NCBI RefSeq assembly: GCF_032854445.1
Contig: NC_088295.1
Location: 94,109,805 to 94,173,804, forward strand
Origin: Liolophura sinensis
Taxonomy: Eukaryota > Mollusca > Polyplacophora > Chitonida > Chitonidae
DNA length: 64,000 bases
Direction of reading: 5' to 3'
In this document: piece after piece, positions 17,601 to 59,117 of the stretch
Layout: each line of letters starts with the position of its first letter
How positions within the stretch are numbered: position 1 is the stretch's first letter
Made by a program: the position numbers and the translations under genes
The notes under the pieces: generated by a model
The model's input: the letters and a program-made list of their open reading frames with translations, nothing else
Told to the model about the DNA's origin: nothing
The model's database searches: none

Positions 17601-20600
17601 TTTGGCAATGTGGTTTTCTTTAGAACAGATTCACACGCTATACATGAACAAAACCAGACATTTAGATCACGCTCTATAGGAGACCAGCGACGCATTTAGA
17701 TCACCCACTTAAGGGACCAGAGAGATATTTAGCTCATGTACTATACAAGACCAGAGAGATATTTAGATCACGTGCTACATGAGACCAGAGAGACATTTAA
17801 ATCATGCGCTATACGACACCAGAAACACATTTAGATCATGCATTATACGACACCAGAGAGACATCTAGATCATGTGCTATAGGAGACCAGAGAGACATTT
17901 AGATCATGCGCAATACAAGACCAGAGAGATATTTAGATCATGTGTTACAGGAGACCAGAGAGACATTTAGATCACGCATTATAGGAGACTAGAGAGACAT
18001 CTAGATCATGTGCTATAGGAGACCAGAGAGGCATTTAGATCACGCGCAATACAAGACCAGAGAGACATTTAGATCACGCTTTACAGGAGACTAGAGAGAC
18101 ATCTAGATCATGTGCTATAGGAGACCAGAGAGACATTTAGATCACGCGCTATACGACACCAGAGAGACATTCAGATCATGTGCTATAGGAGACCAGAGAG
18201 ACATTTACATCACATACTATAGGAGACTAGAGAAACATCTAGATCATGTGCTATAAAAGACCAGAGAGACATTTAGATCACGCCCTATACGAGACCAGAG
18301 AGACATTTAGATCACGCACTATGTGAGAACAGAGAGATATTTAAATCAGTCCAGCTGTCAATGTACAAGTAATCTACCAGCAGTTATGCATAATGATAAT
18401 TATCGTTCTATAGCAGGCATTATGGGAACCAACATCTTGTCCCAACATCTTTTGTTGATTCTTTGGATTAAGAGCAGTTATAACAAAAGTATTTGAACAC
18501 CAGTTGTGTCTCAATCAGGTCATTCTATACTCACCAGACTGACATTGGAATCAAAACTCATTAGGATGTATTTCCAATCAAACTCTATTCCACGGGCTCC
18601 AACCCACAAAGGTAAAAACCTAAATAAATAGATGTAGCAACATCAAATCTAACTGTACACTTCTCCCTCATTATAACGCTGTTGGACAAATCTTCCTATT
18701 CCGTTACAAATGCTGCATGCTATATATATACAAAACAGGAACAGATAGTGTGACAGTCCGTGGCTTTTATTAAACAATTACATAAAAGCCTCTTGAGTGC
18801 AAAGACAAAAAATATTTGCTGGAACTTTAAGTACCAATGTGTGCAACAACAGCTTGGTGCAAAAATTTGTGAAGGGGGGGGGGGGGGGGACACATGTTTG
18901 ACCATGTTACAGCATGTTGTTTCATGTTCTAATGAGAGAGAGGTGTACTATGTGGTCACAGCATCTGCTGAAGACCTGAGTTTGCAGACATGGTCAAAGC
19001 ACACACCCTTACTTTGTGAGTGAGTGAGTGAGTGAGTGCTTGGGGTTTAACATCGTACTCAACAATTTTTCAGTCATATGACGATGAAGAAATCATTAGG
19101 GTGCATGTACGTGTAATAAGCCTCCTTGTTGCAGGACGGATTTCCACCGCTCTTTTATTTAGTGCTGCTTCACTGAGACGACTTACCGAAGGCAAGTAAG
19201 CTGCCCTGCCCGAGCCATTATACTGATACGGGTCAACCAGTCGTTGCACTATCCCCTTCATGCTGAACGCCAAGCGAGGAAGTTACAACTTCCTCTTTTA
19301 AAGTCTTAGGTGTGACTCGATCAAGGATTGATCCTGGATCTACCGGTCCCGAAGCGGACACTCTACCAACTGTGCTATCCGGGCCGGTATCCCTGACTTT
19401 GTGAAAACGGTCAGTGACAACAAACAGCAGCAGGCACACTATGGTACGTGCTGCACAAATATGTCAGCCAAAAGTCAACATCTCAACAAATGGATGTTGT
19501 TGTAGCAATCTCACTTTTTTTCCTCATTGTTAGAGGCTATGTGATTGATGTAAAATTGTATCCAAGGAATATTTTCCAATAAATCTGATGTATTTATTGT
19601 TCTATTATCAGCCAATGCCCTACTCTAGAATTTTTCACTTAAACGATGGCAGTCAGTGTATAGTTGGAGGAAAATGAAGTAATCCACCCACCTTTCAGTG
19701 ACAATTCAGTGATCAACTTTACCATATGTGACACATAGGTATACGCACCATATTGGTGGAAGACACATGGTCTTCACCAGAAGACTGTGTAAACAGCCAC
19801 ATGTGCGTTGTCACCCACTTATTGCCAATAAGGCCCCCAAAGCACAGAGTCCTTAGATTTGATATGTCATGTGAGTTGAGCCATGGCCCATCCCATACTG
19901 GCATGATTGCTTACTTTATCATGATGAGTTGAGCCATGACCCATCCCATACTGGCATGATTGCTTACTTTATCATGATGAGTGCAGCCTCGGCCCATCCC
20001 ATACTGGCATGATTGCTTACTTTATCATGGTGAGTACAGCCTTGGCCCATCCCATACTGGCATGATTGCTTACTTTGTCATGGTGAGTACAGCCTTGGCC
20101 CATCCCATACTGGCATGATTGCTTACTTTATCATAGTGAGTACAGCCTTGGCCCATCCCATACTGGCATGATTGCTTACTCTGTCATGATGAGTTGAGCC
20201 ATGACCCATCCCATACTGGCATGATTGCTTACTCTGTCATGATGAGTTGAGCTGAGGCCCATCCCATACTGGCATGATTACTCACTCTGTCATGAGATGA
20301 GCCGTGGCCCATTCCAAACTGGCATGATTGCTCACTCTGTCATGATGAGTTGAGCCGTGGCCCATCCCATACTGGCATGATTGCTCATTCTGTCATGATG
20401 AGACGAGCCGTGGCCCATCCCATACTGGCATGGTTGCTCATTCTGTCATGAGATGAGCCGTGGCCCATCCCATACTGGCATGATTGCTTACTCTGTCATG
20501 ATGAGTAGAGCTGTGGCCCATCCCATACTGGCATGATTGCTTACTCTGTCATGATGAGTTGAGCCGTGGCCCATCCCATACTGGCATGATTGCTTACTCT

Positions 20601-23600
20601 GTCATGATGAGTTGAGCCGTGGCCCATCCCATACTGGCATGATTGCTTACTTTGTCATAATGAGTTCAGCTGTGGCCCATCCCATACTGGCAGCCATGAA
20701 CTTAAGCTGACCTTTGCCAGCAATCTTTGTCATGACAAAATAGAGTCCGACCAAATCCGTGAGATCTACTGTAGATTTCATGAATTCCTGGAACAGATAA
20801 ACATACACATCCTGTAGAGCTTCCCACTACAACACATTTTACATCACGCCTCTTTCCACTTTTCACATGCACAGCATTTCATTTACTTTGTTGTAACAGA
20901 AATACCATGTCATTTAAAGGATACATGACAAGGTACTATAAATAAGCTAAGAGTATGGTTTTAAAGAAAATAAAGATATACATAACCAGAAATGAGAAAA
21001 AATTTAATTTATCAGGTGTATTTTCTATTTCTTAATAATCCCAATTTTTTACATGTGTATGTGTATTTTTTTAGTTGCATTTTTCCATACATGTTTATGG
21101 CCATATTAATGCCTCAAGAAGTTGTTTTTCACACAAGCTATTCCAACCAAAAGCTATTCCAACCAAAAATCAAACTGCAAGATTATCCGCTACTTCTGTG
21201 GTGCTGTTCTTTGTGCATTATAGATATCCTGACTGACTTCATAGTGAACAGGGCAGGAAGTCTGAGCTGGACTTAATCAGAGAGCAGCTTAAAATTAATG
21301 GAGTTCAGAAGAGTCGGACAACGCCATGTTACCTTGAAGGAAATGGTATGTGCGAGAGGTTCAATCAGCCTCTGCTACATAAGCTGGGTACTCTAACAGA
21401 TAAATAAAAATCATACTGGAAAAGCTTTGTTCCTTCTCTTGTCCATGCATATAATGCTATAAGTCATGAGTCGACAGGGTACATCCCTTATTACCTGGCG
21501 TTTGGCAGGCACACTTGTTTGATCATCGATGCCTTACTAGGCACTAACCCAATGATACTGCGAAAGGCCCGAGAACACTATACGCATCTGAACTGCAGAA
21601 ACGGTCACATTGTACATAACCAGTTGAAATAAAGCATTCTACATGTCACCAGCCTGTCGTCCCAAGTTATTCCCAGCATAACGTGATACATAGAAGTACC
21701 CCATTGGTGACTTTATTAGCCACATATTCACATAACCTATTTGCCCCAACTACATGTATTGGTCTGTTTTCACATCGTGGTGAAACAGAACAATTGGTTA
21801 TTCAAGGCTTAAAACCCATAACTGATTTTTTGTTCTAGTTTTTTAAGTCAACCACCCAAATTTAATAGCTTGATAACCGTTTCTATCCTAATATTACATG
21901 AAAGTCAATCTAGCATGCTTAAAGAGCTGCTTCAGTGTCAAGATTTGTATGTCCTTAAAGCAAGCCTAGATGATATGGATCGAGATAGTTGGAATTGCTT
22001 TCTTAAATTGCAGAAAAAAAATTGTATTGTATTAAAGCCACTGTCAGTTTGGGAGAATAATACGAAAACAAAAGTTTTCTGTTGTGTCCAATTTTGCCTG
22101 TTGTGACGTCATGCAAGAACACTTGACGTCATCGATCACTGATGTACAGCCACAAAAGACATCATACTCACAAACGTACATGATGTCATTCCAGCGTAAC
22201 TGCCTTTCCAGGCGTCATATCCGCCTGATGCATCATCACACAGGGAATATTATCACCTCGCATCAGAAAAATTTTATGGGAACTGCCAAAGGTTTTGTTT
22301 TTGAGGACTTTCGCTTATAGGGGTTAAATAATGTCATTCATTAAAAAATCTTTTGAACAGTGGTGCTAACTATACTCCATGGGGCATCCTTCATATCAGT
22401 TTAATATTTCCGCCTGATCTCTCTTGCGACCAGACTAGCTCTTTAAAAGATGCCAATGATGTTGTTGTACCTGTACTACTGCTTCCCTTAGACTTGACAT
22501 GCCATTCCTGAATTCCTACACATCATGTGACGTTGTCTACTCTTTACCACCGTGTGCATCAAACACTCACCCCAACAACATCGAGACTTCCCGTCGGTAC
22601 ATCAGAGGCAGGGAAGAAGGTAGCCAACACCAACATCTTGCACAGCTGTGTGAACAGGTAGGCAGCCGCAGCCTGGGCACATTTCCAAAAGGCACTGTAC
22701 TCAGCCCTAGAATATTGTAACAACACATGACTGAATGCTCTTATCCTCTTTGTACAGAGATGTTTGTCAGTGCAATCTTTTCATCAAAGGTTTACGCCCT
22801 GGCATTCTATCACTTTACTTAAAACTGTATCTCAAACACATTCAATTATACCGGTATTTTAAAACAATCAGAATTCAATACATTTAAATACGTCTAAGAT
22901 GGTTTTATAGATGGAATTACAGTGCTCCGAATAAGCCAGACCACTGGCAAGTTGGTGATGAACTTTTCCTTTGTGTGATGTACAAAACGCGTACCATGGC
23001 CAAGGTGAAACTGGCTCTCTCGGGGTATTGCTGGGCCATTATTTGGCACATTCAAACAAGGCACCATCAGATGTGCCACAGTGCACGGAGTCCTGTACAT
23101 GGAGATATTTGGTCCTGTACACATTTGCAAGATAAAGCACCATACAAAAAACTAACTGAAATAAATCAGCTGCGGAGAGGGACAATCCACAGGTTGCTGC
23201 AGACCTTCACACATATGCCTTCGCTGGCATACTAACATCCCCGTCATGGAAGCATCGGACACCACTGTGGTTACAATAAATATAGCCCCAGGTGGCTATT
23301 TCAACCCCTCTCTTTAGACTGAGCTGGCACGGTCTCATAGCCACAGTGGCAACCAGTCATAAAATACTAGAAATAATCGTGTACCATTCCAAACCGAGTC
23401 AGAATAGTATTTTCTAAACGATGCCCATAGTCAAAGACAGGCTTCACGTTAGCCCTATGGTGATATGTTTATTAATGTGTAAATTTTAAACTTGGTGAAT
23501 GACAGATGATGTTTTTAAAGGAGAAGAAAATTTAAATATCAAACAAATACCAATGAAAAGAGTATGCATTTCCTTGCAGGTGCATGCTATAAAAAAAATT

Positions 23601-25895: not shown

Positions 25896-26293
25896 CTTGC
25901 TTAGAAATTAACAGAAAATACTGCCAAGTTTGAAGGCAACCAGGCAGGTTGGAAGGAGCTTGAACTATCAACTTCCGGTATGCTATTCGCACCGAATATT
26001 TATTATGGAACCATCATTTGCAAACTGGTCCCATATTCAACTTTGTTTGTTAATACCATTGTCGTGAATTTAAATTTGGGTGGAAATGGACATTTTTCCA
26101 TGCATATATTTTGGACCAGTTATAATGCCAAATGCTGTACAACCCCGATATCACTTGGCAACAGCGTCAGTCTGTGATAACAGCGGATCAGCAATTAAGA
26201 AGGAACACATTTATAAATTCCAGCCTTTGGGGACATTTAAGTCGAACATAGCGGACTTAATCAACGTAAAGCAAGAGGAAAAGGAGTGACACA
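25896..26293. promoter_or_regulatory. Shared bidirectional promoter region, TMEM147 / CFAP126
   Basis: The TMEM147 start codon (25895, minus) and the CFAP126 start codon (26294, plus) face away from each other across 398 bp. No TATA box is evident on either side. Both transcripts must begin within or just beside this stretch unless undetected non-coding first exons exist. Whether they are co-regulated is inference. Confidence 0.6.
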
Positions 26294-31330: not shown

Positions 31331-31439
31331 ATATGGTACCAAATGGCAATCAAGCAATGCCTTGCGACAGTTTCGAACCCAGTGAGGTAAAGCCACCATC
31401 GTAGGTAGCTGACATTAAACTGCCGTTACTTGACATACA

Positions 31440-32176: not shown

Positions 32177-32535
32177 GGAGTGAGTGCTTGGGGTTTAACA
32201 TCGTACTCAACAATTTTTCAGTCATATGACGAAGAAGGAATCATTAGGGTGCATGTACGTGTAATGTGCCTCCTTGTTGCAGGACGGATTTCCACCGCTC
32301 TTTTATTTAGTGCTGCTTCACTGAGACGACTTACCGAAGGCAAGTAAGCCGCCCCGCCCGAGCCATTATACTGATACGGGTCAATCAGTCGTTGCACTAT
32401 CCCCTTCATGCTGAACGCCAAGCGAGGAAGTTACAACTTCCTCTTTTAAAGTCTTACGTGTGACTCAATCAAGGATTGATCCTGGATCTACCGGTCCCAA
32501 AGCGGACGCTCTACCAACTGTGCTATCTGGGCCGG
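32177..32535 (-). mobile_element. SINE-B copy inserted inside the minisatellite
   Basis: Full-length SINE-B with the tRNA-like head at the right end (GGCCGGTG region). It is flanked by TGAGAAACCTCCT on the left and TGAGAAACATCCT on the right: a 13-bp target-site duplication with one mismatch. Array units resume immediately on both sides. Confidence 0.88.
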
Positions 32536-33640: not shown

Positions 33641-33664
33641 AGGCTGAATGCCTTAAATGATAAC

Positions 33665-36284: not shown

Positions 36285-37430
36285 GTGTCAGTAAGATCAG
36301 AGTCGTTATACTCTGTCATCACCTGGGATTTTTTACCTTGGGCCCATGTACAGACACCCTGTGTGTCAGTAAGATCAGGGTAACAGTCTGTTATACTCTG
36401 TCATCACCTGGGATTTCTTCACCTGGTCTCATGTACAGACACCCTGTGTGTCAGTAAGATCAAGGTAACAGTCTGTTATACTCTGTCATCACCTGGGATT
36501 TCTTCACCTGGTCTCATGTACAGACAGCCTGTGTGTCAGTAAGATCAAGGTAACTGTCTGTTATACTCTGTCATCACCTGGGATTTCTTCACCTGGTTTC
36601 AAGTACAGACAGCCTGTGTGTCAGTAAGATCAGAGTCGTTATACTCTGTCATCACCTGGGATTTTTTCACCTGGTCCCATGTACAGACAGCCTGTGTGTC
36701 AGTAAGATCAGACTCGTTATACTCTGTCATCACCTGGGATTTCTTCACCTGGTCTCATGTACAGACAGCCTGTGTGTCAGTAAGATCAAGGTAACAGTCT
36801 GTTATACTCTGTAATCACCTGGGGTTTCTTCACCTGGTCCCATGTACAGACAGCCTGTGTGTCAGTAAGATCAAGGTCACAGTCTGTTACATTCCCTCAT
36901 CACCTGGGATTTCTTCACCTGGTCCCATGTACAGACAGCCTGTGTGTCAGTAAGATCAGAGTCGTTATACTCTGTCATCACCTGGGATTTCTTCACCTGG
37001 TCTCATATACAGACAGCCTGTGTGTCAGTAAGATCAAGGTAACAGTCTGTTATACTCTGTAATCACCTGGGTTTCTTCACCTGGTCCCATGTACAGACAG
37101 CCTGTGTGTCAGTAAGATCAAGGTCACAGTCTGTTACATTCCCTCATCAGCTGGGGTTTCTTCACCTGGTCCCATGTACAGACATCCTGTGTGTCAGTAA
37201 GATCAAGGTAACAGTCTGTTATACTCTGTCATCACCTGGGATTTCTTCACCTGGTCCCATGTACAGACAGCCTGTGGTCAGTAAGATCAAGGTCACAGTC
37301 TGTTACATTCTGTCATCACCTGGGATTTCTTCACCTGGCCTCATGTACAGACAGCCTGTGTGTCAGTAAGATCAAGGTAACAGTCTGTTATAACTCTGTC
37401 ATCACCTGGGATTTCTTCACCTGGTCCCAT
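36285..37430 (-). repeat. Minisatellite made of SMG9 exon 13 coding end plus 3' UTR, about 85-bp unit, about 13 copies
   Basis: On the minus strand each unit repeats ACATGGGACCAGGTGAAGAA, ATCCCAGGTGATGACAGAGT, ATAACAGACTGTTACC and a UTR stretch ending ACAGACAGGCT-like text. The first two blocks are the last coding bases of SMG9. Most copies read on to a stop as ...VMTEYNRLLP, which resembles the normal SMG9 C-terminus better than the exon copy itself. Some copies are about 6 bp shorter. Confidence 0.93.
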
Positions 37431-40400
37431 GTACGGGCAGCATAATGAAACCTGTCACAAAGGAGAGTCAGTTTCATATGTAATTTACATCATATGTCCC
37501 ATGGCATATTAAAAATATTGGTTACATTATAATTAGCCTGGAATTAAGCTAACTGTTTCGCAAATAGTTGCAGCAATTACATCCACTATACAGGTGGCAT
37601 ATGATATGACATGACATGGTCATGCGCAAAAGAGTCAGGGTACACACAGTTTATTTGTGATACATGTACAACTGCCACTTCATGGTAGCAGTCCCGACAA
37701 CTCACCAGTTTTCTCAGACAGAGTGACAACTGAATTCACCCAGTTTTCTCAGACAGATTTGTGTGTGTGTGACAACTCACAAGGTTTTCTCAGACAGAGT
37801 TGTGTGCGTTTGTGTGTGTGACAACTGACCAGTTTTTCTCAGAATTGTGTGCATGTGAGAACTCACCAGTTTTCTCAGACAGAGTTGCATGTGTGTGACA
37901 ACTCACCAGGTTTTCTCAGAGTTGTGTGTTTGTATGTGACAATTCACAAGGTTTTCTCTGACAGAGCTGTGTGTGTGTATGTGTGACAACTCAAGTTTTC
38001 TCAGACAGAGTTGTGTGTGTGTATGTGTGACAACTCAAGTTTTCTCAGACAGAGTTGTGTATGTGACAATTCACAAGGTTTTCTCTGACAGAGCTGTGTG
38101 TGTGTATGTGTGACAACTCAAGTTTTCTCAGACAGAGTTGTGTGTGTGTATGTGTGACAACTCAAGTTTTCTCACACAGAGTTGTGTGTGTGTATGTGTG
38201 ACAACTCAAGTTTTCTCAGACAGAGTTGTGTGTGTGTATGTGTGACAACTCCAAGTTTTCTCAGCCAGAGTTTGTGTGTGTGTATGTGTGTGTGTGTGAC
38301 AACTCACAAGGTTTTCCCAGACAGAGTTGTGTGTGTGTGTGTGTGACAACTCACAAGGTTTTCCCAGACAGAGTTGTGTGTGTGTATGTGTGTGTGTGTG
38401 ACAACTCACAAGGTTTTCTCTGACAGAGTTGTGTGTGTGTGTGTGTGTGACAACTCACCAGTTTTTTCTCAGACAGAGTTGTGTGTGTCAGAAGGTAGCG
38501 TGGGACTCCATACAACTGTCCTCTGAGCGACCTGAGCAGAGTGTTGAAGCTGGGGAACCCTCTGTACTCTGGCAGCAGAGTCAGTATGCTATCTGAAACA
38601 TGACAGTGGCAAGAAATAACAGCCTACCATGCTGCACTTGTTCAAAGCTAGCCTGTGTATCACACTACATGTATTTGCTTATTTTATTGGAATATTTAAC
38701 TTATACAACAGGATGCAGCATTATGGTGGGTGGAAAACAGACCGAGCCCGGAGACACCCACTACCGTGCTCTGGCAGACTCAAGAGTGAAAGGCCCCTGG
38801 GTCAATGTGCTGCGATAGTATACTAACTACTTGGTCACAGAGGTTCCTGAATTATATGAAAAATCATTATGAAAGATTCATTATAAATTTTGAGATTTAT
38901 TTAACAATTCCAGAGCATCCCACACCTTGCACATGAAATCTACAGGACCACCATCTGCCAATCCTACACTTCTTATTTCCACATCCCCTGGGCTCTGCCC
39001 GGTTTTCACCCACCATAATGCTGGCCGCTGTCGTATACGTGAAGTGGTACTGGTTGTGTGCCTTTAAGTACTTATCACATTCACAAGGTGGAATGAAACA
39101 ATTTCTAATCAGCAGTAATTTTTCATTATCAAATATAATTGCATCTAATGCACGAGACTTGCATTCAAACGTCGCTATTACAAAAAGTATGGCACCCATG
39201 TCTCTTAGAGAGGTAATCTCACCGGAGGCAGTAGGTACGTCTCTATTATAGAACACAGTGACATCTCAGAAGGGGCCTTCTAGCGGAGACTTATTCTTTT
39301 CTGCTGTCAAGCACAACCAAGCTTTCTAAGATGTTACAACTATGCCTACCAATGATAGACAACATTCCTACCACACCATTTGACCTCTATCAATCCAGTC
39401 ATCTCTCTTTGTATTTCAATTCATTTACCCAAATTTGGGGTAGCTCCAAAAATTGCACATCAAATCCTATCAGATCTGTGTGCTGGTAAATTGTGTTTCT
39501 TGTTGTTAGCAGTCTTACCCTCACTTAACGTTCCTTGGGCAAGCTCGCAACCCCAAGATAAGGACAGTTACTGACATCTTGTGTAGCAACTGTACAAACT
39601 CACCTGTGTCCATGAACACACTGTGGGTTTTCCCTTGATGGTCAATGTTTGTCGCATATTTATCCATAATATTTCAGATACAAGTCACTAAAAATGTTTT
39701 AAAAACTGTAGATTTTCACACCTTGCACATTGTTAATTGATCACTCAGGAGATTTCATATAAGAATTAATCAACCCCTCTCTGGGAAAAAGTTAAGCTAT
39801 GTACACCAAACTAAAAGGTCTAAGGGAGATAACTCTGCTCCACTTGTCACACGGAAATTCACACTGATGAAGAGGTGTCCAAATATGGCAGCCAGTGATC
39901 ATCACCAACATAAAGGCCTTCCTAGCATATATAATGATTGGTCCCAGGAATCACATTATGTTATAATCATAAAGGAATAACAAGAGAGGAAAGACTGGAC
40001 AAAAACCAATTATCTCTGGAATGAGAATGAAAGATTGGACTAAACTGTTGATGTTAAATCATTAAAATTGATATTTAATAATATTTTCTGCAGTTTTTCC
40101 TATACCACGCACTAAATCTGTAGTCTGAACAATATCCAAGCAGAGCAGAGTGTAGTCTAACCTACATGTACACGAGGTTAACAATGCCTGATGGCTGTTT
40201 ACCTCTGTCAAAGGAGGTGGCTGTATCATATGATGGCAGGAGAAACAGGTTCACATCTGACCGAATGGTTTTCCTGTTAAGTCCTGAGATCACAGAGCCA
40301 TTAGCCAGTGTCAAGGAACCTGCAAATATAAGAATTAAACACTACTCTTAAAAGCGCAAGGTTCCTTTATTTCATGATAATGACCATTAAAGCTTCATTT

Positions 40401-43400
40401 CACAAAGGCGATTAAAATGAAATAAGTTTACTTAATCTGTCTTAGTCACCTGATTTTTACTGGGGACTTCAAAAGATTGCTTTTTTCATTTTACTTTACT
40501 CACTAACCACATAGTTCAGTACATGAGTAGGTAAATATCTTTCAAAGCTGGGGGACGTGACTAAAGAATTAAATCCTATGGACTTCCTCTATGCCAACAC
40601 TTATACAAAATGAATTGTTCTGAGGAGGTACATGTAGTCATATATGTACCGTAAGAGATTTGAAAACAACAACAAAACAATAAAAAATAGAAAGAAAATA
40701 GATCCACAAGAAACCACAAAATAGCCACAACACGTACATAAATACAAAAGGCATAATGTTCTCTGACAGCACAAGAAATCGATATACAGTACATGTCGAC
40801 CAGACAAGAACAAACACACTGTGCACATTAAAGGATCATCAAACATAGTCAATGACATGAAATTTTAAAACATACATCATGTCACTGAACAACATGCTCA
40901 GTGATTTCTGATAGGACCAGAATGTATCCACACTGGAGTCAACCCTGGACTTCACTTCCACTCACCTTTACAGCGAAGCTTAGAGTCCCTGAACGGCATG
41001 CTCAGTGATTTCTGATAGGACCAGAATGTATCCACACTGGAGTCAACCCTGGACTTCACTTCCACTCACCTTTACAGCGAAGCTTAGAGTCCCTGAACAA
41101 CATGCTCAGTGATTTCTGATAGGACCAGAATGTATCCATGCTGGAGTCAACCCTGGACTTCACTTCCACTCACCTTTACAGCGAAGCTTAGAGTCCCTGA
41201 ACAACATGCTCAGTGATTTCTGATAGGACCAGAATGTATCCACACTGGAGTCAACCCTGGACTTTACTTCCACTCACCTTTACAGCGAAGCTTAGAGTCC
41301 CTGAACAGCATGCTCAGTGATTTCTGATAGGACCAGAATGTATCCACACTGGAGTCAACCCTGGACTTCACTTCCACTCACCTTTACAGCGAAGCTTAGA
41401 GTCCCTGAACAGCATGCTTAATGTCTGTTGATAAGACCTGAATGTGTCCATGCTAAAGTCCTCCCTGGAAGCTTGGTTCTGTACAAACACTGAATGTAAC
41501 ACAATATAACTCAACATTTTCCTTGTTCTATCACATAAACAAAGTATCCACAGAGGGATTCTGGCAATGAAAAATTATTTGCTCACAAAGCTGTACTTGT
41601 ATATATGAAGTGGGCTGCAGAAAAACTGCAAAGTAATTCAAATTAGATCACATTTAAAGCTATATTGAGTCCTCGCTGGCTCATCTGGATAAAGCTGTAC
41701 TGGGCCTTTGCTGGTTCATCTGGATAAAGCTGTACTGGGATAAGATTGGTGGATTACTCTGGCAACTCAGATTCCTGGTTAAGGTTGGTAGTTTGCTCTG
41801 GGCACTCAGGTTCCTGGTTAAGCTTCGTGGTTTGCTCTGGGCCCTCACGTTCCTGCTTAAGGTTGGTGGTTTGCTTGGGGCACTCAGGTTCCTGGTTAAG
41901 GTTGGTGGTTTGCTCGGGGCACTCAGGTTCCTGCTTAAGGTTGGTGGATTGCTCTGGGCACTCAGGTTCCTGGTTAAGCTTCGTGGTTTGCTCTGGGCCC
42001 TCATGTTCCTGGTTAAGGCTGGTGGTTTGCTCTGGGCACTCAAATTCCTGGTTAAGGTTGGTGGTTTGCTCGGGGCACTCAGATTCCTGGTTAAGGTTTT
42101 CGTGGTTTGCTCTGGGCACCCACATTCCTGACTGAGGTTGGTGGTTTGCTCTGGGCACTCAGATTCCTGCTTAAGGTTTCCGTGGTTTACTCTGTGCACT
42201 CAGACTTCTGGTTAAGGTTTTCGTGGTTGCTCTGGGCAATCAGGTTCCTGGTTAAGGTTTTTGTGGTTTGCTCTGGGCACTCAGATTCCTGCTTAAGGTT
42301 GGTGGTTTGCTCTGAGCACTCAGATTCCTGCTTAAGGTTGGTGGTTTGCTCGGGGCCCTCACATTCCTGACTGAGGTTGGTGGTTTGCTCTGGGCACTCA
42401 GATTCCTGCTTAAGGTTTCCGTGGTTTACTCTGTGCACTCAGACTTCTGGTTAACGTTTTCGTGGTTGCTCTGGGCAATCAGGTTCCTGGTTGAGGTTTT
42501 TGTGGTTTGCTCTGGGCACTCAGATTCCTGCTTAAGGTTGGTGGTTTGCTCTGGGCACTCAGATTCCTGGTTAAGGTTTTCGTGGTTTGCTCTGGGCACT
42601 CAGATTCCTGTTTAAGGTTTTCGTGGTTTGCTCTGGGCACTCAGATTCCTGTTTAAGGTTGGTGGTTTGCTCTGGGCACTCAGATTCCTGGTTAAGGTTG
42701 GTGGTTTGCTCGGGGCACTCAGATTCCTGGTTAAGGTTTTCGTGGTTTGCTCTGGGCACTCAGATTCCTGCTTAAGGTTTCTGTGGTTTACTCTGGGCAC
42801 TCAGGCTCCTGGTTAAGGTTTTCGTGGTTCGCTCTGGGCATTCACATTCCTGACTGAGGTTGGTGGTTTGCTCTGGGCACTCAGATTCCTGCTTAAGGTT
42901 TCCGTGGTTTACTGTGGGCACTCAGATTCCTGGTTAAGGTTTTCGTGGTTGCTCTGGGCACTCAGGTTCCTGGTTAAGGTTTTTGTGGTTTGTTCTGGGC
43001 ACTCACATTCCTGGCTGAGGTTGGTGGTTTGCTCTGGCCACTCAGATTCCTGGTAAAGGTTTCAGTGGTTTGCTCTGGGCACTCAAATTTCTGGTTAAGG
43101 TTTTCGTGGTTTGCTCTGAGCACTCAGATTCCTGACTGAGGTTGGTGGTTTGCTCTTGGTACTCAGATTCCTGGTTAAGGTTGGTGATTTGCTCTCGGCA
43201 CTCAGGTTCCTGGTTAAGGTTTTCGTGGTTTGCTCTGGGCACTCACATTCATGACTGAGGTTGGTGGTTTGTTCTGGGCACTCAGATTCCTGGTTAAGGT
43301 TTCCATGGTTTGCTCTGGGCACTCAGATTTCTGGTTAAGGTTTTCGTGGTTTGCTCTGAGCACTCAGATTCCTGACTGAGGTTGGTGGTTTGCTCTTGGT

Positions 43401-46400
43401 ACTCAGATTCCTGGTTAAGGTTGGTGGTTTGCTCTGGGCACTCAGGTTCCTGGTTAAGGTTTTCGCGGTTTGCTCTGGGCACTCACATTCATGACTGAGG
43501 TTGGTGGTTTGCTCTGGGCACTCAGATTCCTGGTTAAGGTTTCCATGGTTTGCTCTGGGCACTCAGATTTCTGGTCACGGTTTTCGTGGTTGCTCTGGGC
43601 ACTCAGGAGCTTAATTAAGGTTTTTGTGGTTTGCTCGCGGCACTCAGATTCCTGACTGAGGTTGGTGGTTTACTCTGGGCGCTCAGATTCCTGGTTAAGA
43701 TTTCCGTGGTTTGCTCTGGGCACCCAGGTTCCTGGTTAAGGTTTTCGTGGTTGCCCTGGGCACTCTGGTTCCTGGTTAAGGTTTCCCGTGGTTTGCTCTG
43801 GGCACTCAGATTCCTGACTGAGGTTGGTGGTTTGCTCTGGGCGCTCAGATTCCTGACTGAGGTTGGTGGTTTGCTCTGGGCGCTCAGATTCCTGGTTAAG
43901 ATTTCCGTGGTTTGCTCTGGGCACCCAGGTTCCTGGTTAAGGCTTTTGTGGTTGCCCTGGGCACTCTGGTTCCTGGTTAAGGTTTCCGTGGTTTGCTCTG
44001 GGCACTCAGATTCCTGACTGAGGTTGGTGGTTTGCTCTGGGCGCTCAGATTCCTGACTGAGGTTGGTGGTTTGCTCTGGGCGCTCAGATTCCTGGTTAAG
44101 ATTTCCGTGGTTTGCTCTGGGCACCCAGGTTCCTGGTTAAGGTTTTTGTGGTTGCTCTGGGCACTCTGGTTTGTTTCCTACTGCTTCCTAAATCCATAAA
44201 CCTGACCCTATATATATTTATGAAAAATATCTTGAGGGCTTTGCTAAAAAAACACTACTATGTCCCATAGCAGACCTGAAATAAGCTACGCAAGATTGAA
44301 CAACAAAGCTACAATCTCTGAACAAGTCAGGTACAAGTCAGACAATCCCTTGCAGTTAGCAAGCACACTTATTTCAACTAGATTATTGGAAATGCAGAAT
44401 AAATCCTTTAGCTTAATCTTTCGTAAGATGCTTGTTACAGAACCAGGAAAATAACAGGATTGTGCAAACAAAACCCTCTCTTTCAATTGTCAACAACTGC
44501 TGAGGAAAATCACTGAATACAAAAAGACAGAACTCATGGTAGGAATGACAAGGATAAGTGGTGTATGGGGATAAATGGTGTTTTTGCTGCTGCATACCCA
44601 GGTGGGGGTGGTAGTCGTCAGAATCCTCAGGGTTAGACCCAGACTCCTGGCTGCTGCCTGATGGGGAGGCTGGCTTCAGCATCTCGGCTGTTAGGAGAAA
44701 CCTGTAAAAACAACAGCCCAGGGTTTGATTACCACCTCAAATATCCTCAAGTTTGTACCCTGATAGGTATTGTTTAGACACAGGTACAGATGTATTACAG
44801 GACAAGTGGTGACTGTCCATGAATGCACCCCATATTTCTAACTGGTCACTGTCCATGTATACATCCCATATTTCTAACTGGTCACTGTCCATGTAGGCAT
44901 CCCATATTTCTAACTGGTCACTGTCCATGTATACATCCCATATTTCTAACTGGTCACTGTCCATGTATGCACCCCATATTTCTAACTGGTCACTGTCCAT
45001 GTATACATCCCATATTTCTAACTGGTCACTGTCCATGTATGCACCCCATATTTCTAACTGGTCACTGTCCATGTAGGCATCCCATATTTCTAACTGGTCA
45101 CTGTCCATGTATACATCCCATATTTCTAACTGGTCACTGTCCATGTATGCACCCCATATTTCTAACTGGTCACTGTCCATGTATGCATCCCATATTTCTA
45201 ACTGGTCACTGTCCATGTATACATCCCATATTTCTAACTGGTCACTGTCCATGTATACATCCCATATTTCTAACTGGGGCATGTCCATGTATGCACCCCA
45301 TATTTCTAAACATGCCTGTACAGGCGTTTTAATTGGCCTATGACTTTACCTGAGGAAGTTGAGATCTGCAAACCAATCCTGTACCACAAGGACCACATTG
45401 CACACTGTCATCAGGAAGGCGGCCAGCTGTAATGACTACAAATGAAATCAGATTATCTTCAGCCATATGCTAAATGACCTCAAATTTTGCTCATGACTAA
45501 GCTGCACATCAGGCTACCTGATTATACCAGTGCTTTTAACACTACAGAAAGGTGATCTGAGGTTTGCAGGATGATATCGTAGCAGAAACATATAAGTTTC
45601 AGCTCCAAAAGTAATGTTGAATGATGTTTAATTGCCTCTAAAAATGTAATTTTTCAGGTGAATTTTTTTATCATTCAGGCTAACTATACATATTCTAAAA
45701 CAAAAAGAAGTTTAATGCTATAAAATCAAACTTTGCTTTTTTCACAGACTCAAGGAAAAATGTCTATTGTCTATCAACAAGCAAATATTTGTCGTGAAAC
45801 AGGTACATTGGGGCTTAACAGATTTCTCTGCGTTGTGCACGTTTAGGAGAGTGAGCCCTCCTTGACTCATATCAATAACCTTCAAATCAAGCATTCACTG
45901 ATTTGGTGATAGCTTTACTTCCGCTAGAACTCAAATACCACTGACCAGCCCCGATAGTACAGTTGGTAGAGTGTCCCCTTTGGGAGCGGTAGATCCAGGA
46001 TCAATCCTGGGTTGAGTCACACCTAAGACCTTGGCATTCAACATGAAGTGGATAGTGCAATGACTGGTTGACCAGTATCAGTATAATGGCTCGGGTGGGC
46101 AGCTTACTTGCCTTCGGTAAGGCGTTTGAGTGAAGCAGCACTAGATAGAAGAGCGGTGGAAATCCGTCCTGCAACAAGGAGGCACATTACATGCACTCTA
46201 AGGATTCCTTCATCGTCACATGACTGAAAATGTGTTTAGCTCGACATTAAACCCCAACCACTCACTCATTCCCTCAAATATCACCAGGATTTGGCACCAC
46301 AAACACCATGATGATTTGTCAACGTTTCCTTCTACAGACATCATGATGATTTGCCAGTGTTTACTTCCACGAACATCCTGACGACGTGCCAATGTTTACT

Positions 46401-49400
46401 TCTACAAATATTATGGTGATTTCCCAATGTTTACTTTTACAAATATCATGGTGATTTACCAATGTTTACTTTTACAAATATCATGGTGATTTACCAATGT
46501 TTACTTTTACAAATATCATGGTGATTTACCAATGTTTACTTTTACAAATATCATGGTGATTTACCAATGTTTACTTCCACGAACATCATGGTGATTTACC
46601 AATGTTTACTTCCACGAACATCATGGTGATTTACCAATGTTTACTTTTACAAATATCATGGTGATTTACCAATGTTTACTTTTACAAATATCATGGTGAT
46701 TTACCAATGTTTACTTCCACCAACATCATGGTGATTTGCCAATGCTTACTTTTACAAATATCATGGTGATTTACCAATGTTTACTTTTACAAATATCATG
46801 GTGATTTACCAATGTTTACTTCCACGAACATCATGGTGATTTGCCAATGTTTACTTTTACAAATATCATGGTGATTTACCAATGTTTACTTCCACGAACA
46901 TCATGGTGATTTGCCAATGTTTACTTTTACAAATATCATGGTGATTTACCAATGTTTACTTTTACAAATATCATGGTGATGTACCAATGTTTACTTTTAC
47001 AAATATCATGGTGATTTGCCAATGTTTACTTCCACGAACATCATGGTGATTTGCCAATGTTTACTTCCACAATTATCATGAGAATTTACCAAGTTTTTAC
47101 CTGCATGTGAACACAATTCTCCACGCTAGTGAATTCTGTCGGGTATTTCTTTTCATGATGGATCAGATGATCCATTACGGAGGCACTCAACACAGGCTGG
47201 TAGGGCAGAAAAACAACACCATTACAACCCACGTATAAATATATGCTTATCGGTAAGCTTATTCGAGCACCACATTGCCATCTGTGACTGACAGTTATTA
47301 TTTACTTTATTCATAACACAAATACATACATCCACTTGAACTTCATTAAACTTTATAAACATCATATTTATTAGGCATATCTATTTCAGAAATCTTTTAA
47401 TAGCCACTTGAAGTGTCATTTCATTCTATTCATATATCTCCAATGTTCAGTTTTAAAGTAAAAAAAAAAAAAAAAAAGTCATGCATTGAAACCACTAAAA
47501 ATTTTATATGGAACCTTTCCTACCTATTTATTCATAATGTTTATGATTTAAATAAATTCAATCCAAATATTTAATGACTTTCTCCAGCCTAGCACACAAT
47601 ACATGTCACCCTTTTCTGATGACCTTCACGTATCACCTGTCTGTCCAAGTAGATGATCCCCTCCCCTGTGACATATATTTGTACATGTCAATTCCTCTTG
47701 TCTGATGACCTCCACCTCCCAGCCCCTCACCTGTGTGTCCAGGTAGATGATTCTCTCCACCTGTCACACATGTCAATGCCTCTTGTCTGATGACCTTCTC
47801 CTCCCAGCCAATCACCTGTTCAGGTAGATGATTCTCTCCCCCGTCACATATGTCAATGACTCTGGTCTGATGACCTCCACCTCTCAGCCCCTCACCTGTG
47901 TGTCCAGGTAGATGATTCTCTCCCCTGTCACACATATCAATACTTACTGTCTGATGACTTCTACCTCCCAGCCACTCACCTGTGTGTCCAGGTAGATGAT
48001 TCTCTCCCCTGTCACACATATCAATACCTACTGTCTGATGACTTCTACCTCTCAGCCCCTCACCTGTGTGTCCAGGTAGATGATTCTCTCCCCTGTCACA
48101 TATCAATGCCTCTTGTCTGATGACCTCCACCTCCCAGCCACTCACCTGTGTGTCCAGGTAGATGATTCTCTCCCAAGTCAAACACATATCAATACCTACT
48201 GTCTGATGACTTCTACCTCTCAGCTACCTCACCTATGTGTCCAGGTAGATGATTCTCTCCACCTGTCACACATATCAATACCTACTGTCTGATGACTTCT
48301 ACCTCTCAGCCACTCACCTGTGTGTCCAGGTAGATGATTCTCTCCACCTGTCACACATATCAATACCTACTGTCTGATGACTTCTACCTCTCAGCTACCT
48401 CACCTATGTGTCCAGGTAGATGATTCTCTCCCCTGTCACACATATCAATACCTATTGTCTGATGACTTCTACCTCTCAGCTACCTCACCTATGTGTCCAG
48501 GTAGATGATTCTCTCCACCTGTCACACATATCAATACCTACTGTCTGATGACTTCTACCTCTCAGCCCCTCACCTGTGCCCGGGTAGATGATTCTCTTCC
48601 CGGTCACACATATCAATACCTCTTGTCTGATGACCTCCGCCTTTCAGCTACCTCACCTATGTGTCCAGGTAGATGATTCTCTCCCCTGTCACACATATCA
48701 ATACCTCTTGTCTGATGACCTCCACCTCTCAGCTACCTCACCTATGTGTCCAGGTAGATGATTCTCTCCACCTGTCACACATATCAATACCTACTGTCTG
48801 ATGACTTCTACCTCTCAGCCCCTCACCTATGTGTCCAGGTAGATGATTCTCTCCCTTGTCACACATATCAATACCTACTGTCTGATGACTTCTACCTCTC
48901 AGCTACCTCACCTATGTGTCCAGGTAGATGATTCTCTCCACCTGTCACACATATCAATACCTACTGTCTGATGACTTCTACCTCTCAGCTCCTCACCTAT
49001 GTGTCCAGGTAGATGATTCTCTCCACCTGTCACACATATCAATACCTACTGTCTGATGACTTCTACCTCTCAGCTACCTCACCTATGTGTCCAGGTAGAT
49101 GATTCTCTCCACCTGTCACACATATCAATACCTACTGTCTTATGACTTCTACCTCTCAGCTACCTCACCTATGTGTCCAGGTAGATGATTCTCTCCCCTG
49201 TCACACTTATCAATACCTACTGTCTGATGACTTCTACCTCTCAGCCCCTCACCTACATGTATGTGTCCAGGTAGATGATTCTCTCCCTTGTCACACATAT
49301 CAATACCTACTGTCTGATGACTTCTACCTCTCAGTTACCTCACCTATGTGTCCAGGTAGATGATTCTCTCCACCTGTCACACATATCAATACCTACTGTC

Positions 49401-52400
49401 TGATGACTTCTACCTCTCAGCTACCTCACCTATGTGTCCAGGTAGATGATTCTCTCCCCTGTCACACATATCAATACCTACTGTCTGATGACTTCTACCT
49501 CTCAGCTACCTCACCTATGTGTCCAGGTAGATGATTCTCTCCACCTGTCACACATATCAATACCTACTGTCTGATGACTTCTACCTCTCAGCTACCTCAC
49601 CTATGTGTCCAGGTAGATGATTCTCTCCACCTGTCACACATATCAATACCTACTGTCTGATGACTTCTACCTCTCAGCTACCTCACCTATGTGTCCAGGT
49701 AGATGATTCTCTCCCCTGTCACACATATCAATACCTACTGTCTGATGACTTCTACCTCTCAGCCCCTCACCTACATGTATGTGTCCAGGTAGATGATTCT
49801 CTCCCTTGTCACACATATCAATACCTACTGTCTGATGACTTCTACCTCTCAGCTACCTCACCTATGTGTCCAGGTAGATGATTCTCTCCACCTGTCACAC
49901 ATATCAATACCTACTGTCTGATGACTTCTACCTCTCAGCTACCTCACCTATGTGTCCAGGTAGATGATTCTCTCCACCTGTCACACATATCAATACCTAC
50001 TGTCTGATGACTTCTACCTCTCAGCCACTCACCTGTGTGCCCACGTAGATGATTCTCTCCCCTATCACACAAATCAATACCTACTGTCTGATGACCGCCA
50101 CCTCTCAGCCCCTCACCTGTGTGTCCAGGTAGATGATTCTCTCCCTTGTCACACATATCAATACCTACTGTCTGATGACCTCCACCTCTCAGCCCCTCAC
50201 CTGTGTGTCCAGGTAAATGATTCTCTCCCCTGTCACACACGTCAATACATCTTGTTTGATGACTTCCACCTCTCAGCCACTCACCTGTGTGTCCAGGTAG
50301 ATGATTCTCTCCCCTGTCACACATATCAATACCTCTTGTTTGATGACTTCCACCTCTCAGCCCCTCACCTGTGTGTCCAGGTAGATGATTCTCTCCCCTG
50401 TCACACATATCAATACCTACTGTTGATGACTTCTACCTCTCAGCCCCTCACCTGTGTGTCCAGGTAGATGATTCTCTCCCCTGTCACACATATCAATACC
50501 TACTAACTGATGACCTCCACCTCTCAGCCCCTCGCCTGTGTGTCCAGGTAGATGATTCTCTCCCCTGTCACACATATCAATACCTACTGTTGATGACTTC
50601 TACCTCTCAGCCCCTCACCTGTGTGTCCAGGTAGATGATTCTCTCCCCTGTCACACATATCAATACCTACTGTCTGATGACCTCCACCTCTCAGCCCCTC
50701 ACCTGTGTGTCCAGGTAGATGATTCTCTCCCCTGTCACACATATCAATACCTACTGTCTGATGACCTCCACCTCTCAGGCCCTCGCCTGTGTGTCCAGGT
50801 AGATGATTCTCTCCACCTGTCACACATATCAATACCTACTGTCTGATGACTTCTACCTCTCAGCCACTCACCTGTGTGCCCACGTAGATGATTCTCTCCC
50901 CTATCACACAAATCAATACCTACTGTCTGATGACCGCCACCTCTCAGCCCCTCACCTGTGTGTCCAGGTAGATGATTCTCTCCCTTGTCACACATATCAA
51001 TACCTACTGTCTGATGACCTCCACCTCTCAGCCCCTCACCTGTGTGTCCAGGTAAATGATTCTCTCCCCTGTCACACACGTCAATACATCTTGTTTGATG
51101 ACTTCCACCTCTCAGCCACTCACCTGTGTGTCCAGGTAGATGATTCTCTCCCCTGTCACACATATCAATACCTCTTGTTTGATGACTTCCACCTCTCAGC
51201 CCCTCACCTGTGTGTCCAGGTAGATGATTCTCTCCCCTGTCACACATATCAATACCTACTGTTGATGACTTCTACCTCTCAGCCCCTCACCTGTGTGTCC
51301 AGGTAGATGATTCTCTCCCCTGTCACACATATCAATACCTACTAACTGATGACCTCCACCTCTCAGCCCCTCGCCTGTGTGTCCAGGTAGATGATTCTCT
51401 CCCCTGTCACACATATCAATACCTACTGTTGATGACTTCTACCTCTCAGCCCCTCACCTGTGTGTCCAGGTAGATGATTCTCTCCCCTGTCACACATATC
51501 AATACCTACTGTCTGATGACCTCCACCTCTCAGCCCCTCACCTGTGTGTCCAGGTAGATGATTCTCTCCCCTGTCACACATATCAATACCTACTGTCTGA
51601 TGACCTCCACCTCTCAGGCCCTCGCCTGTGTGTCCAGGTAGATGATTCTCTCCCCTGTCACACATATCAATACCTACTGTCTGATGACCTCCACATCTCA
51701 GCCCCTCACCTGTGTGTCCAGGTAGATGATTCTCTCCCCTGTCACACATATCAATACCTACTGTCTGATGACTTCTACCTCTCAGCCACTCACCTGTGTG
51801 CCCACGTAGATGATTCTCTCCCCTATCACACAAATCAATACCTACTGTCTGATGACCTCCACCTCTCAGCCCCTCACCTGTGTGTCCAGGTAGATGATTC
51901 TCTCCCTTGTCACACATATCAATACCTACTGTCTGATGACCTCCACCTCTCAGCCCCTCACCTGTGTGTCCAGGTAAATGATTCTCTCCCCTGTCACACA
52001 CGTCAATACATCTTGTTTGATGACTTCCACCTCTCAGCCACTCACCTGTGTGTCCAGGTAGATGATTCTCTCCCCTGTCACACATATCAATACCTCTTGT
52101 TTGATGACTTCCACCTCTCAGCCCCTCACCTGTGTGTCCAGGTAGATGATTCTCTCCCCTGTCACACATATCAATACCTCTTGTTTGATGACTTCCACCT
52201 CTCAGCCCCTCACCTGTGTGTCCAGGTAGATGATTCTCTCCCCTGTCACACATATCAATACCTACTGTCTGATGACCTCCACCTCTCAGCCCCTCACCTG
52301 TGTGTCCAGGTAGATGATTCTCTCCCCTGTCACACATATCAATACCTACTGTCTGATGACCTCCACCTCTCAGGCCCTTGCCTGTGTGTCCAGGTAGATG

Positions 52401-55400
52401 ATTCTCTCCCCTGTCACACATATCAATACCTACTGTCTGATGACCTCCACCTCTCAGCCCCTCGCCTGTGTGACCAGGTAGATGATTCTCTCCCCTGTCA
52501 CACATATCAATACCTACTGTCTGATGACCGCCACCTCTCAGCCCCTCACCTGTGTGTCCAGGTAGATGATTCTCTCCCCGTCACAAATATCAATACCAAC
52601 TGTCTGATGACTTCTACCTCTCAGCTACCTCACCTGTGTGTCCAGGTAGATGATTCTCTCCCCTGTCACACATATCAATACCTACTGTCTGATGACTTCT
52701 ACCTCTCAGCTACCTCACCTGTGTGTCCAGGTAGATGATTCTCTCCCCTGTCACACATATCAATACCTACTGTCTGATGACTTTTACCTCTCAGCCCCTC
52801 ACCTGTGTGTCCAGGTAGATGATTCTCTCCCCTGTCACATACATGTCAATACCTCTAGTCTGATGACATCCATTTTCACGTCCATCCTTACTCTCAGGAG
52901 GAAATGTAAATGACCTGCAAAATGAAGAACAATATTAGTGAACTATACAATAAAAACAAGTTATGTGAATTATTTTTTAATCAAAAGTAATGTGTAACGT
53001 CAACTTTTACACATCTAGCATATAATCAGGTCCAGCATTAACAATGATATACTATGCATGATCCCAACACAATAACAAAATCGTTAATTTACTCCTGGAA
53101 TTCCAATATGAATAGACTGACATGTCAACTTCATGTACTTCTATGAGAGCAAATGAACAGATGAGCATGTAAAATATACGCGCAATGCTTACATTTACAC
53201 ATAGTTAAGCTTTGTCAGGGGCCTCTGTGGCTCAGTTGGTTAGCGCGCTAGCGCAGCATAATGACCCAGGAGTCCTCACCCCTGCGGTTGCTGTGAGTTC
53301 AAGTCCAGCTCATGCTGGCTTCCTCTCTGGCCGTACATGGGAAGGGCTGCCAGTAACCTGTGGATTGTCATGGGTGTCTCCTGGCCACCATAATGCTGGC
53401 CGCTGTTGTAGTGAAATATTCCTGAGTGCAGAGTAAGACACCAATCAAATAAATAAATAAATTAGGCCTTGTCATAGCCCCAAAATGCAGGTCCATGAAA
53501 GGAGAGATGAAATCTGTAAAACACTGGGTTTCCCATTCTATATTTTTTAATGTCAGCACAGATTAGATTCTGCTGTGTGGCCTTCACAGACTTCACAGAT
53601 CTCCTTACCTGGGAGAGTCAGATGTAGAATTCCCCACAAGAAGAGAGAGGAGTGTAGATTTCCCCACCCCTTGCAAGCCCACAACACCAACCACCAAGTA
53701 ATCTGTTTGATCCAGGAGCATCTGCATTAAACAGAAAAAATCAAATCTATAAATGATTATCAAAAAATTATGGAAAATTATATTTTCTGGAATCAAAATG
53801 TCAATAAAAAGTTCAAACTATAAAAGTTGTATCAGAATGAAATAGAAGTCAAGCATTTTGACATGCTTAATTCCCCCTTCATCCTATCTCCATATCTGTG
53901 TCACACCACCTACCTCCATGCCTGTGTCACACTTCTGTCAGGGTAACCTACCTCCATGCCTGTGTCACACCACTGTCAAGGTTACCTACCTCAATGCCTG
54001 TGTTACACCGCCATCAGGGTAACCTACCTCAATGTATGTGTCACACCACTGTCGGGGTAACCTACCTCCATGTCTGTATCACACCATTGTCAGGGTAACC
54101 TCCCTCAATGTCTGTGTTACACCACCATCAGGGTAACATACCTCAATGTATGTGTCACACCATTGTCAGGGTAACCTACCTCCATGTCTGTATCACACCA
54201 TTGTCAGGGTAACCTCCCTCAATGTCTGTGTTACACCACCATCAGGGTAACCTACCTCAACGTCTGTGTCGCACCACTGTCAAGATAACCTACCTCCATG
54301 TCTCTGTCACACCAATGTCAGGGTAACCTACCTCCATGCCCGTGTCACACCACTGTCAGGGTAACCTACCCCCATGCCCGTGTCACACCAATGTCAGGGT
54401 AACCTACCTCCATGTCTGTGTCACACCACTGTCAGGGTAACCTACCTCCATGCCCATGTCACACCACTGTCAGGGTAGCCTACCTCCATGCCCGTGTCAC
54501 ACCACTGTCAGGGTAACCTACCTCCATGTCTGTGTCACACCACTGTCAGGGTAACCTACCTCCATGTCCGTATCACACCACTGTCAGGGTAACCTACCTC
54601 CATGCCTGTGTCACACCACTGTCAGGGTAACCTACCTCCATGCCCTGTCATACCACCATCACGCTAACCTATCTGCATGCCTGTGTCACACCAATGTCAG
54701 GTAACCTACCTCCATGCCCGTGTCACACCACTGTCAGGGTAACCTACCTCCATGCCTTTATCACACCACTGCCAGTTCTCATCCACCAGTTTCACAGAGC
54801 CTTGTACGTCCGGGAGGTTCAGAGGCCGGCTTGATTGTGCTCCTGTATGGATGGACAAAATGCTCAGGAATACCAGGCAGTCAGAAGTGTATAAGATGTG
54901 TAGAATATATTTTGATCAACTATACAAGGTTTTCTAATACAAGGTTTATAGCAAACCTGATGTGTCAGTTCTTATGGAAGATGTTTTTGCTTACTATTTT
55001 GCACTTGATACTTAATCAAATTTAGTGTGTTAACATCTCCACAATCAATCTCTATTTGTCTATTTCTGGTTTAGCCTGATTCTGCAAAGGGCAGTAATGT
55101 GTTGATTCTGTTATGAGTAACGTGTGTCTTCCTTTGCCTGATTAAATTATGAGTATATTGTGCCTATAAAGTGTGGTTTTGCTTGATTGTGTTATGAGTA
55201 TATTGTGCCTATAAGGTTTAACTTTGCTTGATTGTGTTATGAGTATATTGTGCCTATAAGGTGTAGTTTTGCTTGATTCTGTTATGAGTATATTGTGCCT
55301 ATAAGGTGTAACTTTGCTTGATTGTGTTATGAGTATATTGTGCCTATAAGGTGTAGTTTTGCTTGATTCTGTTATGAGCATATTGTGTCTATAAAGTGTG

Positions 55401-59112: not shown

Positions 59113-59117
59113 TCGAC

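What the first reader, a model, noticed from the sequence alone, without database searches (positions are those of the whole stretch)
19860..54750. Minisatellites repeatedly grow from 5' splice sites in two neighbouring genes
Of about 23 donors identifiable in the window, six are the exact starting point of a tandem array (TMEM147 exon 3; SMG9 exons 4, 6, 7, 10, 12), and the SMG9 coding end behaves the same way. In five, the unit is exon tail plus donor plus the first intron bases; in one it starts at the donor GT. Unit lengths differ (35-104 bp) and the sequences are unrelated, so no single repeat family is spreading; the shared property is position. None sits at an acceptor. Two explanations fit: duplications spanning a donor are tolerated because an intact donor always remains beside the exon, or something about donors (R-loops, co-transcriptional breaks) promotes slippage. 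From memory, 'mirage' minisatellites of amphioxus are similar; I cannot verify this.
Basis: partly seen in the sequence, partly recalled or inferred. Interest (0 to 1): 0.95.

Follow-up and report, generated by a model that had tools for sequence, protein, structure and literature searches.

The report
Repeats copied from exon ends
In a chiton genome, short tandem-repeat arrays often consist of copies of an exon's last bases together with its splice donor; a wider sample suggests that the donor side of an exon tolerates such repeats better than the acceptor side does, rather than attracting them.

Summary
The window comes from the chiton Liolophura. Of 22 splice donors placed here, five lie inside a tandem array whose unit is exon tail plus donor plus first intron bases; a sixth array starts at a donor, and another runs over the SMG9 coding end. 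None of 22 acceptors lies in an array. NCBI's TMEM147 and SMG9 proteins fit use of the exon-attached copy at all six donors. I then took 148 exons elsewhere in the genome, not chosen for repeats: own-junction copies lie beside 11 donors and 3 acceptors, so the effect is genome-wide and donor-biased, not donor-only. Array edges are about as dense in the last 120 exon bases before donors as in the intron just after (5.1 against 4.5 per 10 kb), but sparser at acceptors (1.7 against 3.4-5.6). That favours tolerance over a donor hotspot, on small counts. The window stands out because arrays cover 47% of it against 11.6% of sampled loci. The kind is in print: amphioxus "mirages", and boundary repeats in some human duplicated genes. 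I found no mollusc case and no genome-wide donor/acceptor rate in the papers I could search.

The parts
19865..20692 (-). 53-bp array, 15.6 copies, spanning TMEM147 exon 3 end (exon 20651-20787) and its donor; 42 exon bases in the array
17656..18348 (-). 34-bp array, 20.4 copies, in TMEM147 intron 4, 186 bp from the exon 4 donor (exon 18535-18619); unit resembles that donor, possibly a decayed case
   Evidence: 12 of 14 bases, p = 0.019, five arrays tried
53908..54775 (-). 38-bp array, 22.8 copies, spanning SMG9 exon 4 end (exon 54748-54842)
47683..52872 (-). 84-bp array, 61.8 copies, spanning SMG9 exon 6 end (exon 52803-52914); 55 of 61 copies keep GT
46299..47096 (-). 35-bp array, 22.8 copies, starting at the SMG9 exon 7 donor (exon 47101-47196)
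40881..41450 (-). 104-bp array, 5.5 copies, spanning SMG9 exon 10 end (exon 41382-41489)
   Evidence: exon start read and P0121
37742..38488 (-). 44-bp array, 17 copies, spanning SMG9 exon 12 end (exon 38459-38592); many copies have lost the GT
36301..37434 (-). 85-bp array, 13.3 copies, starting 17 bp into SMG9 exon 13 (begins 37451) and running past the stop codon
44807..45309 (-). 36-bp array starting 40 bp after the SMG9 exon 8 donor; unit does not resemble that donor
   Evidence: p = 0.95
41741..44166 (-). about 40-bp array wholly inside SMG9 intron 9; no match to either splice site
   Evidence: donor p = 0.11, acceptor p = 0.25
55132..55458 (-). 45-bp array wholly inside SMG9 intron 3; no donor match, a weak match to the exon 4 acceptor
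   Evidence: donor p = 0.27, acceptor p = 0.009

Best explanation
These are 'mirage'-type minisatellites: local tandem duplications that happened to straddle an exon's 3' boundary and then expanded. Shown: the units are exon tail plus donor plus intron start; the annotated proteins fit use of the exon-attached copy; the pattern recurs elsewhere in the genome at both kinds of splice site, more often at donors; array edges are about as frequent across donors as in the intron next to them, and rarer at acceptors. Inferred: new duplications arise all over the exon-near introns of this repeat-rich genome. One that covers a donor or a stop codon leaves the intact exon end in place upstream and so survives selection; one that covers an acceptor puts extra AGs between the branch point and the true acceptor and is removed more often. 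Copies then multiply and homogenise by unequal exchange or replication slippage.
For: 148 unselected exons. Donor side: 9 array edges in the last 120 exon bases (5.1 per 10 kb), 8 in the first 120 intron bases (4.5), 8 in the next (4.5). Acceptor side: 3 (1.7), 6 (3.4) and 10 (5.6). Donor-spanning arrays 9, acceptor-spanning 3 of 148; junctions read by eye. Own-junction copies: 11 donors in 9 gene clusters, 3 acceptors in 3; none of 989 mismatched donor pairings and none of 989 acceptor pairings reach the threshold in the first 128 exons. Gene-wise bootstrap of the donor-acceptor difference: 5.4 points, 95% interval 0.7-9.9. The stop-codon array shows the same logic without a donor. In 5 of 6 window arrays the unit is not a multiple of 3, and one extra unit brings a stop in 4 of 6, so use of later copies should be harmful; P0001 and P0121 contain no such additions at the six donors. 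Window donors are spanned 3.7 times as often as sampled ones (5 of 22 against 9 of 148) where array coverage is 4 times as high (47% against 11.6%). [quoted passage not shown]
Against: Counts are small: donor against acceptor 11 to 3, p = 0.057; TRF-spanning 9 to 3, p = 0.15; the drop at acceptors, 3 against 6, p = 0.51, and within 60 bp it is only 3 against 5. Edge density is level only near the exon: it falls to 2.8 per 10 kb at 240-360 bp on the donor side and to 1-3 per 10 kb beyond 250 bp there (first 128 exons). Acceptor-side introns fall likewise (3.7 at 250-500 bp, below 2 beyond), so it is not donor-specific, but against the far intron donors are richer. In the window itself edges do cluster at donors (5, 2, 1). 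Sampled exon ends rest on profile matches and a splice-site score, not on transcripts, and the families are conserved housekeeping-type ones. Tandem pairs of a strong donor motif outnumber the reversed motif 516 to 256 genome-wide, which a hotspot would also predict, although the single motif is itself commoner (6 against 1 in 360 kb). Duplicated donors in minigenes often favour the downstream copy (recalled), which tolerance alone does not explain.
Confidence: 0.65

Rival explanations
1. Donors are hotspots: something tied to transcription or splicing at the 5' splice site (R-loop, co-transcriptional break, U1-bound RNA) promotes slippage there, so arrays are born at donors.
For: 6 of 22 donors and 0 of 22 acceptors in the window; window edges concentrated at donors (5, 2, 1); donor-side edge density falls with distance from the exon; donor-motif pairs 516 against reversed control 256.
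Against: Edge density is level from the last 120 exon bases to 240 bp into the intron at 148 unselected donors (9, 8, 8). The fall with distance is seen on the acceptor side too. No difference in coding-strand GC skew between donor-spanning and other arrays (p = 0.64). Arrays also occur at acceptors and at a stop codon.
Confidence: 0.2
2. The extra donor copies have a function, for example as decoy U1 sites or poison-splice sites that tune expression (SMG9 being an NMD factor), and are kept by selection.
For: GT is intact in 55 of 61 copies of the exon 6 array; one extra unit brings a stop in 4 of 6 arrays, and donor columns are somewhat better conserved than the middle of the unit in exon 4 (0.964 against 0.925) and exon 10 (1.0 against 0.984).
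Against: Donor columns are no better conserved than the rest in exon 6 (0.951 against 0.956) and TMEM147 (0.922 against 0.941) (the exon 7 figure there is for an offset column). Most aligned exon 12 copies have lost the GT. The same kind of array sits in myosin and chaperonin genes.
Confidence: 0.06
3. Assembly artefact: the arrays, or their position, come from misassembled repeats.
For: SMG9 exon 12 has one A too many for the conserved reading frame and exon 13 an extra T, so small errors near arrays are possible.
Against: The assembly size, 609 Mb, matches a HiFi-based assembly of Liolophura japonica (passages of PMC11068029). Copies differ from each other (mean pairwise 0.86-0.97 in six arrays), and the pattern recurs in 9 gene clusters elsewhere.
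Confidence: 0.03

Closest known systems
Amphioxus 'mirage' minisatellites (Adh3, TnC, globins BflGb6 and BflGb9, PGBD5)
   Same: Tandem units that cross an exon-intron boundary and carry splice sites; unit lengths of 10 to about 160 bp; both boundary types affected; cluster-boundary copies escape homogenisation (passages of PMC3087553 and PMC3902484).
   Different: Another phylum (chiton, Mollusca). Larger than the examples in those passages: up to about 62 copies, six donors plus a coding end in two neighbouring genes, and 7% of 148 sampled donors. A donor-over-acceptor bias is measured here; the passages I read give none. Length instability and spliced RNA were shown there, not here.
Variable internal tandem repeats in human genes of segmental duplications (PMC2812944)
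   Different: Reported in recently duplicated primate genes, half of them in coding sequence; the passages give no donor-spanning ladders and no donor-acceptor comparison.
Intron gain by tandem duplication of AGGT-containing exon sequence
   Same: Local tandem duplication that copies a splice donor.
   Different: There the new intron takes both splice sites from the copies. Here none of 22 acceptors in the window lies in an array.

Membership tests
Mirage minisatellites | Tandem repeat units that span an exon-intron boundary | tested here: met
   Five arrays in the window; 9 donors and 3 acceptors of 148 sampled exons
Mirage minisatellites | Both 5' and 3' boundaries can be duplicated | tested here: met
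   Not in the window (0 of 22 acceptors); met in the sample: L054, L089, L092
Mirage minisatellites | Regular splicing is not disturbed | tested here: inconclusive
   NCBI proteins fit use of the first donor copy at all six window donors, but whether RNA supports each junction was not visible; the annotated SMG9 C-terminus is read from array copies
Mirage minisatellites | Copies homogenised inside the cluster, boundary copy excluded | tested here: inconclusive
   Mean identity among copies and to the exon copy: exon 10 0.974 and 0.843; exon 7 0.899 and 0.753; exon 4 0.861 and 0.808; TMEM147 0.887 and 0.871; exon 6 0.930 and 0.923; coding end 0.907 and 0.942 (reversed). Clear in two or three of six; exon 12 not computed
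Mirage minisatellites | Length instability between alleles or cells | not testable with these tools
   One assembled haplotype only
Intron gain by tandem duplication | Both splice sites of the intron come from the duplicated copies | tested here: not met
   No acceptor in the window lies in an array; the nearest array edge on the intron side is 106 bp away among the 18 minus-strand acceptors. Only the weak intron 3 match points the other way

The most novel reading that the evidence does not exclude
In this chiton, splice-boundary minisatellites are a genome-scale force: if the sampled rate holds, more than one donor in twenty carries a ladder of its own exon end, and some ladders are already used as coding sequence. 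The annotated SMG9 protein ends in residues spelled by array copies (VKKSQVMTEYN...) in place of the conserved C-terminus, so the arrays may be a running source of new exons, C-termini and introns.
Probability: 0.15. Interest if true: 0.8.

Novelty: new member of a known kind. Interest (0 to 1): 0.5.

Why it matters
It takes a curiosity described in a handful of amphioxus genes to another phylum and gives an estimate of how common it is, with its own controls (acceptors and adjacent intron). It offers a direct test of whether splice donors promote or merely permit tandem duplication, and a natural set of exons with tens of near-identical competing donors in which to study donor choice. It also warns that gene models and alignments in such genomes can pick up array copies.

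Tried and rejected
Donor hotspot: tested by edge density against the adjacent intron in 148 exons and not supported. R-loop signature: coding-strand GC skew gives no difference. Selection on donor copies: no consistent excess conservation. A first look at the sample seemed to show acceptor arrays until I checked orientation: the fetched loci are not turned, so minus-strand matches were reverse-complemented before the counts used here. Origin of the other intronic arrays: among five tried, one hint at a donor and one at an acceptor. Genome-wide pattern pairs: donor motif 516 against 256 reversed, acceptor motif 311 against 200 reversed. On the first chromosome I count by eye 20 separate donor clusters (listing cut at 93.39 Mb) and 6 acceptor clusters; these are motif counts, not placed junctions, and a cluster count for the reversed control did not complete. 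Microhomology at breakpoints cannot be separated from the repeat start and was not tested. SMG9 gave no Pfam family with the piece used. PMC12005716 (passages) was not used.

What was left out of counts: of listed matches I fetched 9 of 10, 70 of 81, 49 of 50, 20 of 24 and 0 of 132. All 148 fetched exons were counted. The donor of L054 was corrected by eye before the final count; its automatic position lay inside an array and had counted as a tenth spanning donor. The first 68 loci have 1500-bp flanks and partly overlap, the other 80 have 400. The 249-aa SMG9 piece lacks exon 3 and everything after exon 9. Intron lengths printed use provisional acceptors and are not used.

After the filing check: I added the weak acceptor match in intron 3, the fall of edge density away from exons, the exon 10 conservation figure and the human boundary repeats, and withdrew the statement that nothing outside amphioxus is in print. 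Confidence in the best explanation went from 0.68 to 0.65 and in the hotspot from 0.18 to 0.20 because.
Full report
What the window is. The window lies on contig 1 of a 609,464,459-base assembly, C1:94109805-94173804. TMEM147 is identical over its whole length to the NCBI protein of the chiton Liolophura sinensis, SMG9 is 99% identical to that species' protein, and contig 1 has the length given for both proteins' contig (96,433,062). A Liolophura japonica assembly of about 609 Mb is in print (PMC11068029, passages); that it is the same assembly is my inference. Genes: a Kazal inhibitor, TMEM147 and Flattop (Pfam) and SMG9 (PDB match 6l54).

The observation. I placed 22 donors and 22 acceptors. 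Five donors lie inside arrays that take in 28-70 exon bases (TMEM147 exon 3; SMG9 exons 4, 6, 10, 12), one array starts at a donor (SMG9 exon 7), and the coding-end array starts 17 bp into the last exon. Unit lengths at donors are 35, 38, 44, 53, 84 and 104 bp, as reported. No acceptor lies in an array: 6 of 22 against 0 of 22, p = 0.021. The match between unit and junction is far beyond chance for exon 4 (score 116, maximum 22 over 930 background stretches); exon 7 is weaker (38 against 33). A 45-bp array in SMG9 intron 3 has a weak match to the exon 4 acceptor (p = 0.009), which would be an exception if real.

What the copies say. In exons 10 and 7 the exon copy is clearly the odd one out (copies 97% alike but 84% like the exon; 90% and 75%), in exon 4 moderately, in exon 6 and TMEM147 hardly, and in the coding-end array the reverse. 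GT is kept in most copies of four arrays and lost in many exon 12 copies. One extra unit would shift the frame in 5 of 6 and add a stop in 4 of 6. The NCBI proteins carry no such additions at the six donors; their RNA support was not visible to me.

Beyond the window. I took 148 exons from SMG8, myosin-head, TCP1-chaperonin and class I tRNA-synthetase matches, chosen by protein profile and not by repeats, in 36 gene clusters. TRF arrays span 9 donors and 3 acceptors. A separate test, whether a junction has a copy of itself within 385 bp, gives 11 donors and 3 acceptors; in the first 128 exons none of 989 mismatched pairings on either side reaches that score. I read the junctions: L056, L103, L045 and L120 repeat exon tail plus donor closely, while L089 repeats 48 bp of exon head with its acceptor. 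So this is a property of the genome and not of two genes. It leans to donors (bootstrap interval of the difference 0.7-9.9 points) but is not exclusive to them.

Hotspot or tolerance. If donors attracted arrays, array edges should pile up there. In the sample they do not: 5.1 per 10 kb in the last 120 exon bases, 4.5 in the first 120 intron bases and 4.5 in the next. At acceptors the figure falls from 5.6 and 3.4 in the intron to 1.7 in the exon. Farther than about 250 bp from exons edges thin out on both sides, so arrays favour exon-near intron in general. The simplest reading is that donors are transparent to duplication and acceptors are a partial barrier. [quoted passage not shown] All these counts are small, and no single contrast is decisive (p = 0.057, 0.15, 0.51). 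In the window itself the edges do look concentrated at donors, and a motif-pair count leaves room for a mild excess.

Arrays cover 47% of it against 11.6% of 68 sampled loci, and donor-spanning arrays are correspondingly more frequent: 5 of 22 against 9 of 148, p = 0.021.

Relation to known work. Tandem repeats across exon-intron boundaries were named mirages in amphioxus, with Adh3, TnC, globin and PGBD5 examples, at both boundary types and apparently without disturbed splicing (PMC3087553 and PMC3902484, passages). Variable minisatellites at exon-intron boundaries are also reported in human genes of segmental duplications (PMC2812944, passages). I found no mollusc case and no genome-wide donor and acceptor rate in searches, of which I saw listings and the passages named here; the held library lacks most subscription journals.

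Noticed in passing
39442-39568, minus strand: A full-length U4atac minor-spliceosome snRNA (86.5 bits, gathering score 53), with the AAUUUUUGGA Sm-like stretch, lies inside SMG9 intron 11 on the same strand.
   Followed up: partly
36880-36996, minus strand: The annotated SMG9 C-terminus (P0121) is read from copies of the coding-end array instead of the conserved WFHYAAR exon.
   Followed up: partly
38459-38475 and 37390-37420, minus strand: SMG9 exon 12 has one A too many for the conserved frame and exon 13 an extra T; real variants or assembly errors.
   Followed up: no
whole window: Minisatellites cover 47% of the window, about four times the share in 68 sampled gene loci.
   Followed up: yes
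55132-55458: The unit of the array in SMG9 intron 3 weakly matches the exon 4 acceptor (p = 0.009), a possible decayed acceptor case.
   Followed up: no
29896-35043: Long arrays fill most of the space between the 3' ends of Flattop and SMG9.
   Followed up: no
58260-63361: Two arrays (59-bp and 52-bp units, 5.1 kb together) lie upstream of the SMG9 start.
   Followed up: no
26290-29252, plus strand: Flattop (CFAP126) has four introns and no array within 500 bp of any of its donors, unlike both of its neighbours.
   Followed up: partly
sampled loci L001-L148: Arrays in genes lean G-rich on the coding strand wherever they lie (mean skew 0.113 in 61 non-boundary arrays); not tested against zero.
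   Followed up: no
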